Origin: Ochrobactrum sp. Marseille-Q0166
GTDB taxonomy: Bacteria > Pseudomonadota > Alphaproteobacteria > Rhizobiales > Rhizobiaceae
Direction: 5' to 3'
Length of the DNA: 64,000 nucleotides
Assembly (NCBI RefSeq): GCF_014397025.1
Contig: NZ_JACJUO010000003.1
Location: 248,001 to 312,000 of the forward strand
The notes beneath the pieces were generated by a model. That model searched no databases. It had not been told where the DNA came from and saw only the letters and a list, made by a program, of their open reading frames with translations. Shown piece after piece: positions 56,085 through 63,744 of the stretch; the stretch's first letter is position 1; every line of letters begins with the position of its first letter. Both the position numbers and the translations under genes were made by a program.

Positions 56085-57572
56085 TCAGTGCACCGCAGCA
56101 TACATAATGTCTTTCTCAGTGACTGTAAGGGGTGAGAATTCTTCGACAATGCGTCCCTGACGACAAACCAGAATACGATCTGACAGGGCCAGAATTTCCG
56201 GCAAATAAGATGAGATTACGATAACAGCCAGTCCCTGATCTGCGAGACCTTCAATCAGACTGTGAATTTCCGCAATCGCGCCCACATCAACGCCTCGCGT
56301 CGGCTCATCGAAGATAATGAGTTTGGGCTTCTGCACAAGCGCCTTGCTGATGACAACCTTTTGCTGATTGCCGCCTGAAAGTTCAATAACCTGTGCCTTT
56401 GAATCAATACTTCTGATGGCGAGCTTACTTCGCCATGCGTCGGCAAGCGCCCTCATTTCCTTATAGCTGACAACAGGCAGCCGCTCCAAACCAGCAGCGA
56501 GAAGTCCGGCATAAAGGTTTTCAGCGATGGACATGGTCTCAAAGAAACCGTCAATTTTACGGTCTTCGGTGACATAAACAATCCCGTCCCGCACGGCCTC
56601 GCGCGGCGTTGTGTAGCGCACGGGCTGTCCGCGATATTCAATAGTTCCGCCACGCAGAAAATTGCGTTTGAAAACTCCGGCGATGATCTTGGCCGTCTCT
56701 GTTCTGCCAGAACCAACAAGCCCAAAAATACCGGTCGCCTGCCCCTCGAAAACTGAGAACGATGTATTGCGCACCATCGCTCCCATAGACACATCTTCGA
56801 CAGAAAGGATGCGTGGACCAGCAGAACGAATAGCTCTGCGGGGCTGGGAACCCTCGACAGAAGCACGGCCGATCATCGCCTCAACGATCTTCGCCTGATC
56901 CAGATGAGCCGTTTTTTCTGTCATCACCTTTTCACCGTCACGCATGATAGTGATGCGGTCTGATATAAGCAGAGCTTCTTCGAGAGCATGACTGATGAAA
57001 ACGATGGTTACGCCGCGTTTTTTCAATCGCCGGACAAGTGCGAAGAAGTGTTTTCGCTCTTCAGGTGTCAAGGTCGCCGTTGGTTCATCAAAAATGATGA
57101 TCCTGGCATTCAGCCGCACTGCGCGCGCAATCTCCACCATCTGACGCTTTGCAGCACCAAGCGTAGAAACATTGGCCGTGGGATCAACAGTAAAATTGAG
57201 CGATTGTAAGAATTGCTGTGCAGCAATGGTGATACCGCGCAAACGGTTGAATGCTTTCTCGTCACCGAGATAGAGATTTTGGGCAACAGTCATCGAGGGC
57301 ACAAGGCTCGTTTCCTGAAACACCATAGCGATACCATGTTGCAAGGCATCAGCCGGGCCTGAAAACTGTATTTCCTTTCCATTCAGAACAAGCTTGCCTG
57401 AACTCGGCTCCACAACACCGGCAAGCAGTTTGCTCAGCGTAGACTTTCCGGCTCCATTTTCACCCAGCAGTGCATGCACCTCACCCGGGTGAAGGTCGAA
57501 ATCAACCGCATTCACGGCGACATTCCCGTGATATGACTTCGTAATCGCTTTGGTTTCCAGCAGAACTGTCAT
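56085..57572 (-). CDS. Sugar ABC transporter ATPase, two domains (RbsA-like)
   Basis: A 495-residue carbohydrate-type ATPase. Domain 1 has the complete Walker A GENGAGKST, Walker B IIIFDEPTATLT and the divergent signature LGAAKRQMVEIARAV. Domain 2 has the degenerate Walker A GLVGSGRTETA and the full signature LSGGNQQKVVISKAL, as is normal for RbsA/MglA. It powers the importer formed by the two permeases. Its ATG overlaps the preceding propeller gene (ATGA). Last gene of the operon. Confidence 0.9.
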   Translation of the reverse strand: MTVLLETKAITKSYHGNVAVNAVDFDLHPGEVHALLGENGAGKSTLSKLLAGVVEPSSGKLVLNGKEIQFSGPADALQHGIAMVFQETSLVPSMTVAQNLYLGDEKAFNRLRGITIAAQQFLQSLNFTVDPTANVSTLGAAKRQMVEIARAVRLNARIIIFDEPTATLTPEERKHFFALVRRLKKRGVTIVFISHALEEALLISDRITIMRDGEKVMTEKTAHLDQAKIVEAMIGRASVEGSQPRRAIRSAGPRILSVEDVSMGAMVRNTSFSVFEGQATGIFGLVGSGRTETAKIIAGVFKRNFLRGGTIEYRGQPVRYTTPREAVRDGIVYVTEDRKIDGFFETMSIAENLYAGLLAAGLERLPVVSYKEMRALADAWRSKLAIRSIDSKAQVIELSGGNQQKVVISKALVQKPKLIIFDEPTRGVDVGAIAEIHSLIEGLADQGLAVIVISSYLPEILALSDRILVCRQGRIVEEFSPLTVTEKDIMYAAVH

Positions 57573-58642
57573 TGTCCATCACCTTTACCAAGTTCGATAA
57601 TCAGATCAGCTCCCTTCACGGTTGCAAGCACCGACGAGCCGGTATCCAGTATCGACGTTAATCCGTGACGGTTTCCGTCAGAGCGACTATGGAAACTTTC
57701 CTCGGGCAGGCACTGACTGTCGAGTCGGACCGCCAGACCGTATGAACGCGATGGCGCCCAGGGTTTGTGCACCCCCATCGTGCGCACCGATCCGCATTGC
57801 AATGGCGCAAGAAAGTCGGAGCCAGAAGACAGTGCGGGCGCAATCCAGTATTCGCGCTCAATTGTTGCAAGCATATCGTGACGAAAAGTCTTTTCCTGCA
57901 ATACAAACTCGATCAGGCGATTTCTGGGTGCAAAGACAGATAGCCAGAAACCACCATTGCGCGCAGGGGACAGTCTGCCCGGATAACCCGGAATTCTGGT
58001 CAGAACCGGCATTATACCCTTTGTGGCATCTATGCGAATAATGCGGTGTGCAAAAGCCTCACTAAAGTAAATCGAGCCATCACGGTCAACCTGAACACCC
58101 GATGGCCATGCAAGCCTCTCAGCCAGAAGAGTTGCTTTTCCGGAAGCAATATCAAGCGACCAAACAGACCCGGTCGCCTGTTTGTTCATGAGTGCGACAA
58201 CCCAGTCAGACGGCGCATATGTGGCAGAACCCACTGTCACAACGATGGTCGTTGCGTCGATTACTGATACAGCCGTTGGACAACGAAGGACGTTGGAACC
58301 AAGACGGTCGAAGGACTTACCGTCATGTGTGCCACCGTGCACAAGCAGTTTTCCGTTATCGAGCGCGACAATCAGAGCGTCATCGGAAAGCGCCGCCAGC
58401 GCGGAAATATCGGCATCGTAGTCGGCAATCTTCTCCGTTGTCGCGCCAGTGATTTTGAACACTGAAGCACCGGACGAAAAGACAGGCTTGCCCGACCAAA
58501 GAACGAGATTATCTGGCACTTCATGCGCATGAAGGACCGGGGCATCATCCAGCGCAGTATTTGGTTTGTAGGCACCATCATAGGGTGGGATCGTAATGGC
58601 CTTGCCACGGAATGGATCAAGAAGGCGGTCAATGAAACTCAT
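57569..58642 (-). CDS. Strictosidine-synthase/SMP-30-like beta-propeller, metal ligands substituted
   Basis: A 357-residue cytoplasmic protein of the SMP-30/strictosidine-synthase-like six-bladed propeller group. The repeat landmarks can be followed: HEVPDN near 40, RCPTAVSV near 121, AWPSGVQVDRDGSIYF near 179 and GYPGRLSPARNGGFWL near 219. In active relatives these carry E, N, N and D as metal ligands; here the last three read T123, S181 and G222. It therefore looks non-catalytic and may bind sugar-like ligands or regulate its neighbour. GGGGAGAGG precedes the ATG, which overlaps the upstream stop. Confidence 0.78.
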   Translation of the reverse strand: MSFIDRLLDPFRGKAITIPPYDGAYKPNTALDDAPVLHAHEVPDNLVLWSGKPVFSSGASVFKITGATTEKIADYDADISALAALSDDALIVALDNGKLLVHGGTHDGKSFDRLGSNVLRCPTAVSVIDATTIVVTVGSATYAPSDWVVALMNKQATGSVWSLDIASGKATLLAERLAWPSGVQVDRDGSIYFSEAFAHRIIRIDATKGIMPVLTRIPGYPGRLSPARNGGFWLSVFAPRNRLIEFVLQEKTFRHDMLATIEREYWIAPALSSGSDFLAPLQCGSVRTMGVHKPWAPSRSYGLAVRLDSQCLPEESFHSRSDGNRHGLTSILDTGSSVLATVKGADLIIELGKGDGQ

Positions 58643-60762
58643 TTTGCCTCTCCCCAATAGGAATTCCAGCCCGTCCATTCAGGATCAGCTCCGTCAATTC
58701 GGATACGGCCAATCCGGTTATTGAGGATACCGCCAATATAGAGAAAGCCTTTGTGCTCGCGCATGGACGTCACCATAGGGTGACTTGCGCCACCAAGATC
58801 GCCCAAGGTTGCAACGATGGTGCCGGATTCATCAAATTTCACGACGCCGCCCGTGTTAATATTGGGAAACAGCCACTCATCCTGCGGAAGACGCCGGGTC
58901 ATGCGTTTGCGCATACCGGGATTACGCAACGCAAGATCGAAGCTTGGTGTGCGCATGCCCAGCCATGCCATCCAGTAGGTGCCATCGGAGGCACGATTGA
59001 TATTATCCGGATAGCCGGGCATGTCCCTGATAACTGTTTCAAGCGTGCCCGCCTTTGGTCCCTCAATCCAGTAACGGTGAACTGAGCACGCCCACGACTC
59101 TGCCAAGAGCAGCGACTGTCCATCATGGGATATGCAAACGCCGTTGGAATAGCGGAGATTTTTAAGAACTGTCCGCGTTTTGCCAGTTTTTGGATCATAG
59201 ACCAACAAACGCCCGGTGGGTCGGCTCTCAATGGAATCCAGAACCCAGTCATGTGCATCATAACGGGTAGTGGAATCGGTAAACCAGACCCGACCGTGGC
59301 GGTCTATGTCACAATCATTCGGATCACGCAGTCGCGCATCGTCGATGACGGAAAAAAAGGATCGCCGTGTCTCCGTTGATAATTCACTGACCGTGCCATC
59401 CTGTGCAACAGAATACAAACCCATCGCACCCACGCAAGATTTGATCGATCCGTCACGGTCGATAGCCAGCCCCAGCGGAAATCCGCCAATATGGGCAAAT
59501 ATCTCTGAGCGTTTATAATCCGGTGCAAAATAGCGGACGATTTCGCCATGCCGGGTGCCCGCATAAAGATTATCCTCGCGGTCCAGAACCACATCTTCCG
59601 GACCTTCGACTTCACCAATACCGATGGCTTCAGCACTGGCCAGTGAATTGTTGAGCGCGTATGGCGTTCCCGATCCGGGAACCGCTGACAAAGCCGTCTG
59701 CATCCGGTGATGCACGGGTGCCACGTAAACTTCAGATACGACCTTGTGGCGGTTCTTAAGCCAGCGAACATCAAACACGATTGCAAGCGCCAACAACAAT
59801 CCGAGGATCATCTGATTGGTCCCCGTTCCCGCGCCCATGCGGATCAATCCGTTATTGATGAGCAGAACGGCAACGGCACCCATAAAGCCCTTGGCAATGG
59901 AACCACGACCGCCACCAAGGCTGTTCCCACCGACAACGGCTGCTGTCAATGCCAGCAGTTCCAGTCCAAGACCGGTTCCTGGCCCGACCCCGGACAACCG
60001 AGCCGCGAAAAGATAGCCGGCGATGCCACATGCACCTCCGCACACCACATAAGTCAGGAAAACCGTTCGCCGCACCGGAATGCCAATATTAAATGCAGAA
60101 CGACGAGCGCCACCAACGGCGCTGATGTGCCAGCCAATGCGTGATCGTGTGATAATCAGATGAGCGAGTACTGTAAAAATCAGAGCGATCAACGCACTCA
60201 CAGGCACTCCCCATAAGGTGCCCATACCCATCCAGTCAAAGCTATCAGAATAGACCGCAGAACTTTGTATCTGTCTGCCGTAATGAATGATCAGAATATC
60301 GTAAATTGAACGACCGATAATGAGCGTAACAAGTGTTGTGAGAAATGCGCGCAGACGCAGATAGCCAATGAGAAAGCCGTTGAACGCGCCAAACAAGGCC
60401 CCTACGCTGACCGCAGCAATAAAGGCCAGCCAGACAGGCCCTTCTCCAATATAAATGACGCAGAGTGTGGTAAAAGCTGCAAGAGCAAAAATAGACCCTA
60501 CCGACAGATCAATCCCGCCTCCGATGATAACCACCGTAAGCCCGATCACGACAATTAGAAACTCTCCAAGCTGCCGGGATGTATCAAGAAGACTGCCTGC
60601 GGTAAAAAAGCCCGGAACGAGCGCGCCAAAAATACCGATGACAGCGATCAGAAAGACAAACGGAACCAGATTGTCAGCCCAGTTTTTAACCAGAATTTCT
60701 CCGGCGAGATGATCCGGGATTCTGTTATATCGAAACCGCGCTAGCGCTTCTCTCATTTTCAT
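58639..60762 (-). CDS. Sugar ABC permease fused to an SMP-30/strictosidine-synthase-like propeller
   Basis: A 707-residue fusion. Residues 1-345 are an RbsC-type permease (IIGGGIDLSVGSIFALAAF, then AVVGGNSLGGGRGS and eight to ten membrane segments). A linker of about 35 residues leads to a propeller domain (about 380-707) with EGPEDVVLDRE (E386), RDPNDCDID (N482), RYSNGVCIS (N540) and GYPDNINRASDG (D586), the full ligand set of metal-dependent lactonases and strictosidine-synthase-like proteins. RbsC permeases end inside the cell, so the enzyme domain should sit at the cytoplasmic exit. The ATG at 60762 is chosen; earlier in-frame starts run through the hairpin at 60804. Confidence 0.85.
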   Translation of the reverse strand: MKMREALARFRYNRIPDHLAGEILVKNWADNLVPFVFLIAVIGIFGALVPGFFTAGSLLDTSRQLGEFLIVVIGLTVVIIGGGIDLSVGSIFALAAFTTLCVIYIGEGPVWLAFIAAVSVGALFGAFNGFLIGYLRLRAFLTTLVTLIIGRSIYDILIIHYGRQIQSSAVYSDSFDWMGMGTLWGVPVSALIALIFTVLAHLIITRSRIGWHISAVGGARRSAFNIGIPVRRTVFLTYVVCGGACGIAGYLFAARLSGVGPGTGLGLELLALTAAVVGGNSLGGGRGSIAKGFMGAVAVLLINNGLIRMGAGTGTNQMILGLLLALAIVFDVRWLKNRHKVVSEVYVAPVHHRMQTALSAVPGSGTPYALNNSLASAEAIGIGEVEGPEDVVLDREDNLYAGTRHGEIVRYFAPDYKRSEIFAHIGGFPLGLAIDRDGSIKSCVGAMGLYSVAQDGTVSELSTETRRSFFSVIDDARLRDPNDCDIDRHGRVWFTDSTTRYDAHDWVLDSIESRPTGRLLVYDPKTGKTRTVLKNLRYSNGVCISHDGQSLLLAESWACSVHRYWIEGPKAGTLETVIRDMPGYPDNINRASDGTYWMAWLGMRTPSFDLALRNPGMRKRMTRRLPQDEWLFPNINTGGVVKFDESGTIVATLGDLGGASHPMVTSMREHKGFLYIGGILNNRIGRIRIDGADPEWTGWNSYWGEAK

Positions 60763-60886: not shown

Positions 60887-61915
60887 TTAAGTCTTCGCTG
60901 CTTCGATTGCTTTCTGGCTCCAGCAGACGCCGGGCGCCAGATCAGCCTTCGTACGCGCGCGTTCAAGCGTGTAAAGGTAGCGGGCCTTGTCACCAGGCTT
61001 TTCATTGCCCTGCAACAGAAGCTTTATCGCAGTTACAACGTCGTGCGACTGACGAACCAGCTCACTGGTGACAATGGCGCCGAAAGTGCCATCTTCCAGC
61101 AGGTTACAGTCGATCTGCTCGCCCCCGCCGGTGGTCACCAGAAACACCTTGTCTTGAAGACCGGCATCACGAATGGCAGCAGCGGTTCCCTGCGCGGTCG
61201 CATCCCAGAAATCGATAATACCGCACACATCAGGATTCTGCTGCAACAGAGTTGTGGCTGCATTGCGTGCGGTGGTTGGATCCCAGTTGGAATCAGGCTG
61301 GCCAACGACTTTGAATTCAGGGTTCTTCTCGAGAACAGCCTGCACGCCAGCCCATTGATCGAGGCTGGATGCATTAACCTGATCGCCCTGTATGACGCCG
61401 ATCTTCTTGCTGGAATTTGGCCCGCAGCCTTTGATAACCGCTTCTGCTTCCAGCTCTCCAAGCTTCTTCCAGTCCGAGCCAGCAAAGACGTCCGACGCAT
61501 AGTTTGATGGATTATCGAGCTGGATAACAAAAATGCCAGCATCCTGTGCCCGCTTATAAAGGCGGCTGTAGGAGTTGATGTCCGGGGACTGTACAATCAG
61601 CACATCAGGCTTGTTCGCCGACGAAATCAAATCGGTAATCGCCTGCGCACCTGCGTCCACGCTCCAATTCGGATCACGCGTTTCCCAGATACCACCGAAA
61701 GCCTTGACTTCTTCGCCAATAAAATGGTTCCAGCCCTGAGCGAGATCGAAGCCCATTGTCATTGGCACCAGCACAACGCGCTTGCCCTTGAGCGCATTTT
61801 CATAGGCTGCTGGACCAGGATTACCCGCATCCTGCGCAGAGCTTGTGAAGGCTCCCACAGCGAACATCATGGTCGCAGACACAGCGGCCAATAAACCACG
61901 CTTCCATAATTTCAT
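60887..61915 (-). CDS. Periplasmic sugar-binding protein (RbsB-like)
   Basis: A 342-residue binding protein of the type I periplasmic-binding fold. A Sec signal peptide covers about 1-27 (LLAAVSATMMFAVGAFTSSA, before QDAG). ALKGKRVVLVPMTMGFDLAQ, AITDLISSANKPDVLIVQSPD and GIFVIQLDNPSN follow the family pattern; cysteines such as C176 in VIKGCGPNSS are uncommon in this fold. AGAGGG precedes the ATG. It supplies both permeases of the operon. Confidence 0.88.
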   Translation of the reverse strand: MKLWKRGLLAAVSATMMFAVGAFTSSAQDAGNPGPAAYENALKGKRVVLVPMTMGFDLAQGWNHFIGEEVKAFGGIWETRDPNWSVDAGAQAITDLISSANKPDVLIVQSPDINSYSRLYKRAQDAGIFVIQLDNPSNYASDVFAGSDWKKLGELEAEAVIKGCGPNSSKKIGVIQGDQVNASSLDQWAGVQAVLEKNPEFKVVGQPDSNWDPTTARNAATTLLQQNPDVCGIIDFWDATAQGTAAAIRDAGLQDKVFLVTTGGGEQIDCNLLEDGTFGAIVTSELVRQSHDVVTAIKLLLQGNEKPGDKARYLYTLERARTKADLAPGVCWSQKAIEAAKT

Positions 61916-63200: not shown

Positions 63201-63611
63201 TCAACTGGTCACATCAAATTCAGGGTCAACAGGAATAGACAAGGCGGTAACAATCCGATTGGTCTCTGATGCCATTCCAATAACAGCAAGGAGATCGCCG
63301 TACTGAGCATCCGTCATTCCCTTGGCGCGCGCTGCGGCCGTGTGGGAATGGATGCAATAATTGCAACCGCTGGCAACCGACACTGCAATATAAATCAGTT
63401 CTTTTGTCAGAGGATCCAGTGCAGACGGCGCTACCATCACTTCTTTCAGACTTTGCCACGTCCGTTCGAGGGTGAGAGGATCATTCGCCAATCCCCGCCA
63501 AAAATTATTGATGAAGTCTGATCCCCGAACCGCCTTTATGTCATCGAATACGGCTTTGACGCGGGGGGATTTCTCTGCATCCATGTCGGTCCAGAGCTTT
63601 ACTGTCGCCAT
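63201..63611 (-). CDS. Carboxymuconolactone decarboxylase/AhpD-like protein
   Basis: A 136-residue helical protein with the CxxC redox motif CNYCIHSHTAAARAKGM, preceded by LDPLTKELIYIAVSVASG, typical of the CMD/AhpD family. Members reduce peroxidase partners through the CxxC pair or decarboxylate lactones. AAGGTGAT precedes the ATG at 63611; an in-frame start nine codons earlier is less likely. It lies upstream of the sugar operon in the same direction but is separated from it by the operator region. Confidence 0.85.
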   Translation of the reverse strand: MATVKLWTDMDAEKSPRVKAVFDDIKAVRGSDFINNFWRGLANDPLTLERTWQSLKEVMVAPSALDPLTKELIYIAVSVASGCNYCIHSHTAAARAKGMTDAQYGDLLAVIGMASETNRIVTALSIPVDPEFDVTS

Positions 63612-63744
63612 TTCATCACCTTGAATTACTTCCATCATCGCTAGACGTTATAGCAAACAGACAACGCCGCCCAAAATAAGAATTTCTCTTCAGGCAAAGT
63701 AAATCATGGCGGGTTCACCACCCTGCATGGAATAACGGAATTGT

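What the first reader, a model, noticed from the sequence alone, without database searches (positions are those of the whole stretch)
58639..60762. Sugar importer permease fused to a metal-ligand-complete SMP-30/strictosidine-synthase-like propeller
One chain joins an RbsC-type permease (1-345) to a beta-propeller (about 380-707) that keeps E386, N482, N540 and D586, the ligands used by lactonases and strictosidine-synthase-like enzymes. The topology expected for RbsC places the propeller at the cytoplasmic exit of the channel. This suggests import coupled directly to lactone hydrolysis or another reaction on the arriving sugar, a vectorial arrangement that standard ribose-type importers lack.
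Basis: partly seen in the sequence, partly recalled or inferred. Interest (0 to 1): 0.75.

Follow-up and report, generated by a model that had tools for sequence, protein, structure and literature searches.

The report
Importer with built-in hydrolase-like propeller
A bacterial nutrient importer carries, as part of one of its membrane channel proteins, an enzyme-like wheel-shaped domain that probably opens ring-shaped lactones (or similar esters) as they enter the cell; it belongs to a widespread family whose members keep the same five-gene layout.

Summary
The fusion is real. It lies on the minus strand (window 58639-60762, 707 aa): an RbsC-type permease followed by a strictosidine-synthase-like (SSL) propeller. 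It is neither a frameshift nor unique. In class, phylum and order samples, 15 of 16, 17 of 17 (rows above 50% identity) and 53 of 54 rows lie in open frames of fusion length. It sits in one cassette: permease, binding protein, FUSION, second propeller, double ATPase. 'Sugar' is doubtful, not excluded: about half of the paralogous cassettes examined sit near CoA-linked acid catabolism genes. Four, in two clades, lie between a degradative HMG-CoA reductase and an HMG-CoA lyase, which points to mevalonate or mevalonolactone; a propeller lactonase (Drp35) hydrolyses the latter. Best reading: an ABC importer class with a cytoplasmic, exit-side lactone or ester hydrolase. The window member's substrate is unknown; catalysis is untested.

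The parts
58639..60762 (-). Fusion gene (FUS), 707 aa: RbsC-type permease plus SSL-type propeller
   Evidence: start chosen by homologues (M1 nearly invariant)
59728..60762 (-). Permease part, residues 1-345 (BPD_transp_2 at 62-327)
59668..59727 (-). Linker, residues 346-365; segment 341-379 is 39 residues in 81 of 81 orthologues and 36-39 in the paralogue set
58642..59667 (-). SSL-type propeller, residues 366-707
59596..59598 (-). Codon of E389, the ligand-position Glu (aligned to TGW6 E59), invariant in 108 rows (107 distinct)
59317..59319 (-). Codon of N482 (N in 83, D in 25 of 108 rows)
59143..59145 (-). Codon of N540, invariant in 108 rows
59002..59007 (-). Codons of D586-N587, invariant in 108 rows
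57569..58642 (-). PROP2, stand-alone degenerate propeller, 357 aa; its ATG overlaps the FUS stop (ATGA)
56085..57572 (-). RbsA-type double ATPase, 495 aa; start overlaps the PROP2 stop
60887..61915 (-). Periplasmic binding protein (Peripla_BP_4), 342 aa
61967..62953 (-). PERM1, second RbsC-type permease without propeller, 328 aa (start codon not verified)
63201..63638 (-). AhpD/carboxymuconolactone-decarboxylase-like protein; its family is within 8 genes of FUS in 73 of 81 loci

Best explanation
The locus encodes one member of a conserved five-gene ABC importer class (PERM1, binding protein, permease-propeller fusion, stand-alone pseudo-propeller, double ATPase). The binding protein delivers a small cyclic ester (lactone) or related ester to a PERM1-FUS permease pair. 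The ATPase drives uptake. The propeller fused to the permease C-terminus sits in the cytoplasm beside the exit and hydrolyses the arriving molecule with an SSL/lactonase-type pocket. The open acid is charged and handed to acid catabolism, so hydrolysis traps it inside. The degenerate second propeller, probably co-translated with the fusion, pairs with it or with PERM1 as a structural or regulatory partner. In a small subset the substrate is probably mevalonolactone or mevalonate; for the window's own member it is unknown. Shown here: fusion, cassette, residue conservation, gene contexts. Inferred: cytoplasmic side, subunit pairing, hydrolysis, vectorial coupling, substrate class.
For: Fusion conserved: 15 of 16 rows, 17 of 17 rows above 50% identity and 53 of 54 rows lie in frames of 707 aa or more. 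The 559-aa exception runs off a 3230-base contig; the 608-aa one is a partial match. Cassette order: PROP2 next in 78 of 79 loci, ATPase second in 78 of 79, binding protein -1 in 71 of 72, PERM1 -2 in 71 of 72; the one upstream exception is the window's own locus, where my gene caller missed the binding-protein gene that one search shows. Same order in all 27 copies at 40-69% identity (26 new; L153 repeats L054). Propeller more conserved than permease: mean 0.89 against 0.835; 86 propeller against 49 permease positions at 98% or more. Pocket positions E389/N540/D586/N587 never vary. Nearest solved structure by sequence is a hydrolase, TGW6. The propeller profile also matches DFPase and Drp35; Drp35 hydrolyses mevalonolactone at 478 umol/min/mg, at least 100-fold above other lactones tested (PMC6052127). 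The cassette lies between degradative HMG-CoA reductase and HMG-CoA lyase in four genomes, in two clades. FUS ends in ATGA in 71 of 81 loci.
Against: TGW6 had no Ca in its crystal. The Arylesterase (PON) model stays below its cut-off (15.3 against 21.3). Mevalonate-linked cassettes are few: 2 of 54 FUS rows in the order sample, and HMG-CoA reductase and FUS co-occur in only 4 genomes of 347 (35 and 45 carriers; about 4.5 expected by chance). Other HMG-CoA reductase operons carry TRAP or Peripla_BP_6 genes instead, so the transported form could be mevalonate itself. The window's own member has no lactone-specific neighbour; in its subfamily LacI-type regulators (4 of 81 loci) and a DUF4432 gene (3 of 81) hint at sugars, and one paralogous cassette lies next to a carbohydrate-kinase gene (L132).
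Confidence: 0.55

Rival explanations
1. The propeller is not an enzyme but a cytoplasmic sensor or gate: it binds the imported compound (or its product) and slows transport, like the regulatory domains that trans-inhibit some ABC importers (recalled).
For: It is physically tied to the permease; a second propeller without the metal-site residues is kept beside it; metal-site acidity varies among paralogues (N482 to D in 25 of 108 rows).
Against: 86 propeller positions, including the pocket, are conserved at 98% or more across paralogues with very different operons; a mere sensor would be expected to vary with its ligand. The nearest solved relative is a hydrolase.
Confidence: 0.25
2. The propeller is a structural anchor: with PROP2 it builds a platform that holds soluble catabolic enzymes or the ATPase at the membrane.
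For: Nearly constant linker length (39 residues in 81 of 81 orthologues; 36-39 in the paralogue set), pairing with PROP2, FUS ending in ATGA in 71 of 81.
Against: A scaffold needs no conserved pocket. PROP2, the likelier scaffold, evolves much faster: the P group has longer branches than the F group.
Confidence: 0.1
3. One reading: a sugar importer whose propeller opens the sugar's lactone.
For: The permease, ATPase and binding protein are of the ribose type. The same genome has another ribose-type operon followed by a separate SMP-30 gene. In the window's subfamily, 4 of 81 loci have a LacI-type regulator and 3 of 81 a DUF4432 gene (sugar-epimerase-like fold, recalled) upstream. One paralogous cassette (L132) lies beside an FGGY carbohydrate kinase, another (L131) beside two SMP-30 genes.
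Against: No sugar equivalog cut-off is met among the models shown (25 of 190 shown for the ATPase). In the window's subfamily the commonest neighbours are AhpD-like protein, quinone reductase and class IV aminotransferase. 13 of the 27 copies have a CoA-linked catabolic gene in the fetched stretch, by my reading.
Confidence: 0.15

Closest known systems
RbsABC-type (CUT2) ABC importers
   Same: Peripla_BP_4 binding protein, BPD_transp_2 permeases, double ATPase of the RbsA/AraG type.
   Different: Two unlike permeases, one with a C-terminal propeller, plus a second stand-alone propeller; scores far below the curated sugar-transporter cut-offs (RbsC 149 against 398).
Strictosidine-synthase-like (SSL) hydrolases such as rice TGW6 (8kg3)
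   Same: Str_synth and SSL_N models above cut-off; same pocket positions E/N/N/N.
   Different: Fused behind a permease and probably cytoplasmic. The three unfused bacterial relatives examined begin with a hydrophobic segment.
Drp35 / SMP-30 / DFPase propeller lactonases and esterases
   Same: Profile match to DFPase and Drp35 and to SGL; Drp35 is a mevalonolactone lactonase.
   Different: Distant in sequence; the fusion to a permease is not known to me for these (recalled).
LplT-Aas transporter-enzyme fusions (recalled, not searched)
   Same: A membrane transporter fused to the enzyme that modifies the arriving substrate.
   Different: Unrelated protein families and chemistry; not an ABC importer.

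Membership tests
CUT2/RbsC-type ABC importer | BPD_transp_2 permease, Peripla_BP_4 binding protein, double ABC ATPase in one operon | tested here: met
   BPD_transp_2 111.5 bits (cut-off 26.8), Peripla_BP_4 135.8 (35.1), ABC_tran two stretches
CUT2/RbsC-type ABC importer | Equivalog of a named sugar transporter | tested here: not met
   best scores RbsC 149.4 of 398, AraG 446.6 of 689, allose binding protein 59.1 of 335; for the ATPase only 25 of 190 models were shown
CUT2/RbsC-type ABC importer | Transports a sugar | not testable with these tools
   needs binding or uptake assays
SSL (strictosidine-synthase-like) propeller | Str_synth and SSL_N domains | tested here: met
   Str_synth 79.5 (cut-off 25), SSL_N 51.2 (18.9)
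SSL (strictosidine-synthase-like) propeller | Pocket positions of the Ca site (TGW6 E59/N167/N226/N272) | tested here: met
   E389, N482 (N or D), N540, N587
SSL (strictosidine-synthase-like) propeller | A bound metal | not testable with these tools
   no structure; TGW6 crystal had no Ca
Strictosidine synthase proper (Pictet-Spengler enzyme) | Catalytic Glu in the last blade (identity and place recalled) | tested here: inconclusive
   the aligned position is T665 in all 108 rows, but which Glu is catalytic is recalled
SMP-30/gluconolactonase (SGL) | SGL domain above cut-off | tested here: met
   60.3 bits (cut-off 26.3)
SMP-30/gluconolactonase (SGL) | Lactonase activity | not testable with these tools
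   needs an enzyme assay
Paraoxonase/arylesterase | Arylesterase domain above cut-off | tested here: not met
   15.3 bits, cut-off 21.3

The most novel reading that the evidence does not exclude
A distinct class of ABC importers does vectorial import-hydrolysis: lactones are imported and opened at the channel exit by a propeller built into one permease half, while a catalytically dead sister propeller, translated in step with it, completes a pseudo-symmetric complex. At least twice the cassette was built into mevalonate-degradation operons, where it acts as a mevalonolactone importer-lactonase.
Probability: 0.35. Interest if true: 0.82.

Novelty: new variant of a known kind. Interest (0 to 1): 0.66.

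Why it matters
If true, this is a broad, so far undescribed transporter class (I found no paper on it in the held open-licence library; searches). The trapping enzyme would be part of the channel rather than a separate cytoplasmic protein. It would give a function to many database proteins now named only 'SMP-30/gluconolactonase/LRE family protein', 'ABC transporter permease' or 'ribose transport system permease protein'. It would supply an uptake step for mevalonate or mevalonolactone catabolism in some Alphaproteobacteria, and it offers a natural enzyme/pseudo-enzyme propeller pair for testing how ABC importers can couple transport to chemistry.

Tried and rejected
Joining error or pseudogene: rejected; homologues share the join.

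Separate genes as the common state: the 17 rows above 50% identity are all in frames of 707-840 aa. The 22 rows at 41% or less are in frames of 358-441 aa except three: one of 840 aa (G608, where the called gene is 354 aa) and two of 620 and 664 aa that contain stops. These searches scored only a few candidates per genome (usually five or six), so row counts are lower bounds. Database searches with each half alone returned mainly pieces on short contigs; one genome (Rhizobium sp. OAE497) has the two halves as separate pieces on one long contig (P0314 and P0150), which I read as a broken copy but did not examine.

Periplasmic propeller: considered because the three unfused relatives examined have an N-terminal hydrophobic segment. 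Less likely: no hydrophobic segment after residue 338 and no signal-like segment in PROP2 (0 of 107), basic residues right after the last segment. The linker 336-379 as a whole is only slightly positive (K+R 5.3, D+E 4.4). E. coli RbsC having its C-terminus inside is recalled. The hydropathy script found nine segments; I count a tenth at about 89-108 by eye.

E386 as ligand: rejected for E389.

Pathway from neighbours for the window's own member: AhpD-like 73, quinone reductase 29, aminotransferase IV 25, LysR 25, glutamine-synthetase-like 17, isochorismatase-like 16, FGase 15, RpiR 10 of 81 loci; LacI 4, DUF4432 3. Too mixed to name a substrate.

Dropped rows: the genome-contig scan kept 80 of 141 confirmed relatives. 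The 29 regions were chosen by me from hits (26 regions with 27 fusions, 3 unfused controls). In one search every second F and P row was used. The first gene caller picked shadow frames and was replaced. Neighbour genes were assigned by clusters and a few family-searched representatives, not gene by gene. Papers: passages only of PMC6052127, PMC10958001, PMC11378808, PMC9007349; all others seen only as search listings. Searches on RbsC topology (49) and mevalonate uptake (63, 64, 66) gave nothing I used; search 79 led to PMC6052127 and search 80 to PMC10958001.

Full report
1. The observation. The finding lies on the minus strand (the + strand frame at these coordinates holds many stops). The 707-codon gene at 58639-60762 (a longer frame of 788 codons starts inside the binding-protein gene; homologues favour the shorter start) carries BPD_transp_2, SSL_N, Str_synth and SGL, all above the curated cut-offs. 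Of 2952 database relatives with E of 1e-3 or less, the 120 listed all show the same four domains and 706-741 residues. The genome has 4.44 Mb in three contigs. A same-genus genome (G019) shares its contig length, 677,111 bases, with a Brucella pituitosa record, from which I infer the genus. The fusion occurs in 8 of 35 genomes sampled from that genus, own genome included.

2. Is the join real and general? With the propeller as query there are 16 rows at 49% identity or more in 10 of 385 genomes of the class and 17 above 50% among 398 of the phylum. With a paralogous propeller as query there are 54 rows in 45 of 347 genomes of the order. All lie in open frames of 707 aa or more except one (559 aa, running off a 3230-base contig) and one partial match (608 aa). 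In one search (60 genomes) 11 of 12 rows at 50% or more lie in frames of 709-794 aa; the twelfth, 430 aa, is a second copy in the same contig as an intact frame. Frame length alone does not prove a permease, but all 108 rows that I aligned (107 distinct) have both halves. The 22 rows at 41% or less are distant relatives; the three whose neighbourhoods I fetched are unfused (354-370 aa). A tree of 15 fused propellers, 15 PROP2 and 3 unfused SSL proteins separates the three groups. So the fusion looks like a single, old event followed by duplication.

3. The cassette. In 81 loci (80 from public contigs plus the window's own genome) FUS is followed by PROP2 in 78 of 79 and then the ATPase in 78 of 79, and preceded by the binding protein in 71 of 72 and PERM1 in 71 of 72. 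The upstream exception is the window's own locus, where my caller missed the binding-protein gene that one search shows; the downstream ones are L031 (PROP2 split) and L039 (PROP2 outside the cluster). All 27 fusions, 40-69% identical, show the same order; one of them (L153) repeats L054. One genome (G399) has three cassettes within about 25 kb and two more fusions on other contigs. PROP2 starts on the FUS stop codon in the window: ATG 58642-58640 overlaps TGA 58641-58639; the last four bases of FUS are ATGA in 71 of 81 loci.

4. The pocket. By alignment to TGW6 (8kg3), whose Ca-site positions are published as E59, N167, N226 and N272 (passages of PMC10958001), the equivalents here are E389, N482, N540 and N587, with D586 beside. 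The offset of 28 between chain and published numbering is my derivation; it fits all four positions. A canonical SMP-30 from the same genome aligns N482, N540 and D586 to its own N, N and D. TGW6 is a hydrolase but its crystal showed no Ca, so metal binding must not be assumed. In the paralogue set of 28, N482 is kept in 4, N540 in 4, D586 in none. PROP2 is therefore a pseudo-enzyme by sequence, yet it accompanies the fusion throughout.

5. Side of the membrane. Family-averaged hydropathy and charge give a strongly positive loop 205-233 (K+R 6.5, D+E 0.1); four segments follow it, which puts the C-terminus inside. Basic residues follow the last segment, though the linker as a whole is nearly balanced (K+R 5.3, D+E 4.4). 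No 19-residue window of 1.6 or more occurs after residue 338 in the 108 fusions, and none in the first 80 residues of 107 PROP2, whereas the three unfused SSL proteins score 2.25-2.94 there.

6. What passes through it? The window's subfamily keeps an AhpD-like protein nearby (73 of 81), a quinone reductase (29), a class IV aminotransferase (25) and a LysR regulator (25) (families); four loci have a LacI-type regulator and three a DUF4432 gene. Of the 27 fusions, 13 have a CoA-linked catabolic gene in the fetched stretch by my reading: an acyl-CoA ligase-hydratase fusion with an AraC regulator, BKACE, a CoA-transferase with a hydantoinase/caprolactamase-like pair, enoyl-CoA hydratases, HMG-CoA enzymes. 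Others have alcohol and aldehyde dehydrogenases or nothing telling; one (L132) has a carbohydrate kinase and one (L131) two SMP-30 genes. Four cassettes are embedded in mevalonate-degradation operons. G399 (L129) and G853 (L187) read HMG-CoA reductase, PERM1, binding protein, FUS, PROP2, ATPase, HMG-CoA lyase. G488 (L135) and G028 (L147) have a CoA-transferase and an enoyl-CoA hydratase in addition (the lyase is on the other strand in L135). In L135 reductase and lyase exceed the NCBIfam cut-offs (431 against 259.95 and 411.4 against 246); the G399 and G853 reductases do too; the G028 reductase and the other lyases rest on BLAST identity. The tree puts these four in two clades, and its well-supported branches force two changes. 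Of the 12 other reductase loci fetched, 7 carry TRAP genes (L171-L173, L178-L181), 4 a Peripla_BP_6 protein (L170, L175, L176, L177) and one neither (L174) (families from representatives). The window's own genome has such an operon without the cassette (L175). In the order sample reductase occurs in 35 and FUS in 45 of 347 genomes, both in 4, about the 4.5 expected by chance; in 2 of those 4 they are adjacent. So the link is by gene position in a few loci, not by co-occurrence.

7. Mechanism. Drp35, a propeller lactonase that the present profile matches, converts mevalonolactone to mevalonate at 478 umol/min/mg, at least 100-fold above other lactones tested (passages of PMC6052127). Together with a hydrolase as nearest solved structure, a conserved pocket, and many contexts with acid-activating enzymes, the simplest account is import of a lactone or ester and its opening at the exit, which yields a charged acid that is trapped inside. 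The pairing of PERM1 with FUS, and of the two propellers, is inferred from gene content only. A sugar lactone as the window member's substrate is not excluded.

8. Standing. The transporter parts are ordinary CUT2-type; the fusion, the pseudo-propeller and the fixed five-gene layout are not described in any paper I found (open-licence full texts only). Databases already contain the architecture under generic names. I rate it a new variant of a known kind.

Noticed in passing
L029 1913-7628 (own genome C2, about 510-516 kb): A second ribose-type importer operon (binding protein, ATPase, two permeases) followed by a separate canonical SMP-30 gene: the same pairing of importer and lactonase-like propeller, but unfused.
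   Followed up: partly
L175 (own genome C3:72978-74138 and neighbours): Degradative HMG-CoA reductase operon with CoA-transferase, enoyl-CoA hydratase, HMG-CoA lyase and MocR-type regulator, without the fusion cassette; a same-genus genome (L147) has the five-gene cassette between the hydratase and the lyase.
   Followed up: partly
L171-L173, L178-L181, L187: Degradative HMG-CoA reductase operons show a 'transporter slot' filled by unrelated transporters (TRAP, Peripla_BP_6-type, fusion cassette): a lead for mevalonate uptake in bacteria.
   Followed up: partly
L036 15222-20231 and similar loci: Glutamine-synthetase-like, isochorismatase-like and N-formylglutamate-amidohydrolase-like genes near the cassette in 15-17 of 81 loci; an unexplained amine or amide pathway.
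   Followed up: no
L038-L041 (Pleomorphomonas-like loci): LacI-type regulator (4 loci) and DUF4432 gene (3 loci) upstream of the cassette: a possible sugar-type substrate in this branch of the window's subfamily.
   Followed up: partly
L154_5, L155_6, L156_4 (unfused SSL proteins): Stand-alone bacterial SSL propellers begin with a strongly hydrophobic segment, suggesting an extracytoplasmic propeller, opposite to the fusion's inferred side.
   Followed up: partly
L031 / G019:C3 (Brucella pituitosa contig, 677,111 bases): A second copy of the fusion near the other contig end has a shorter frame, and the PROP2 gene is interrupted in the first copy: possibly assembly redundancy with indels; not examined further.
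   Followed up: no
L032 (MAG labelled Xylophilus): 97% identical (best segment) to the window's fusion although labelled as a betaproteobacterium: possibly a mis-binned contig.
   Followed up: no
L131 14157-15497 (G322): Two separate SMP-30 (SGL) genes, one of them short, lie close to a fusion cassette with alcohol and aldehyde dehydrogenases.
   Followed up: partly
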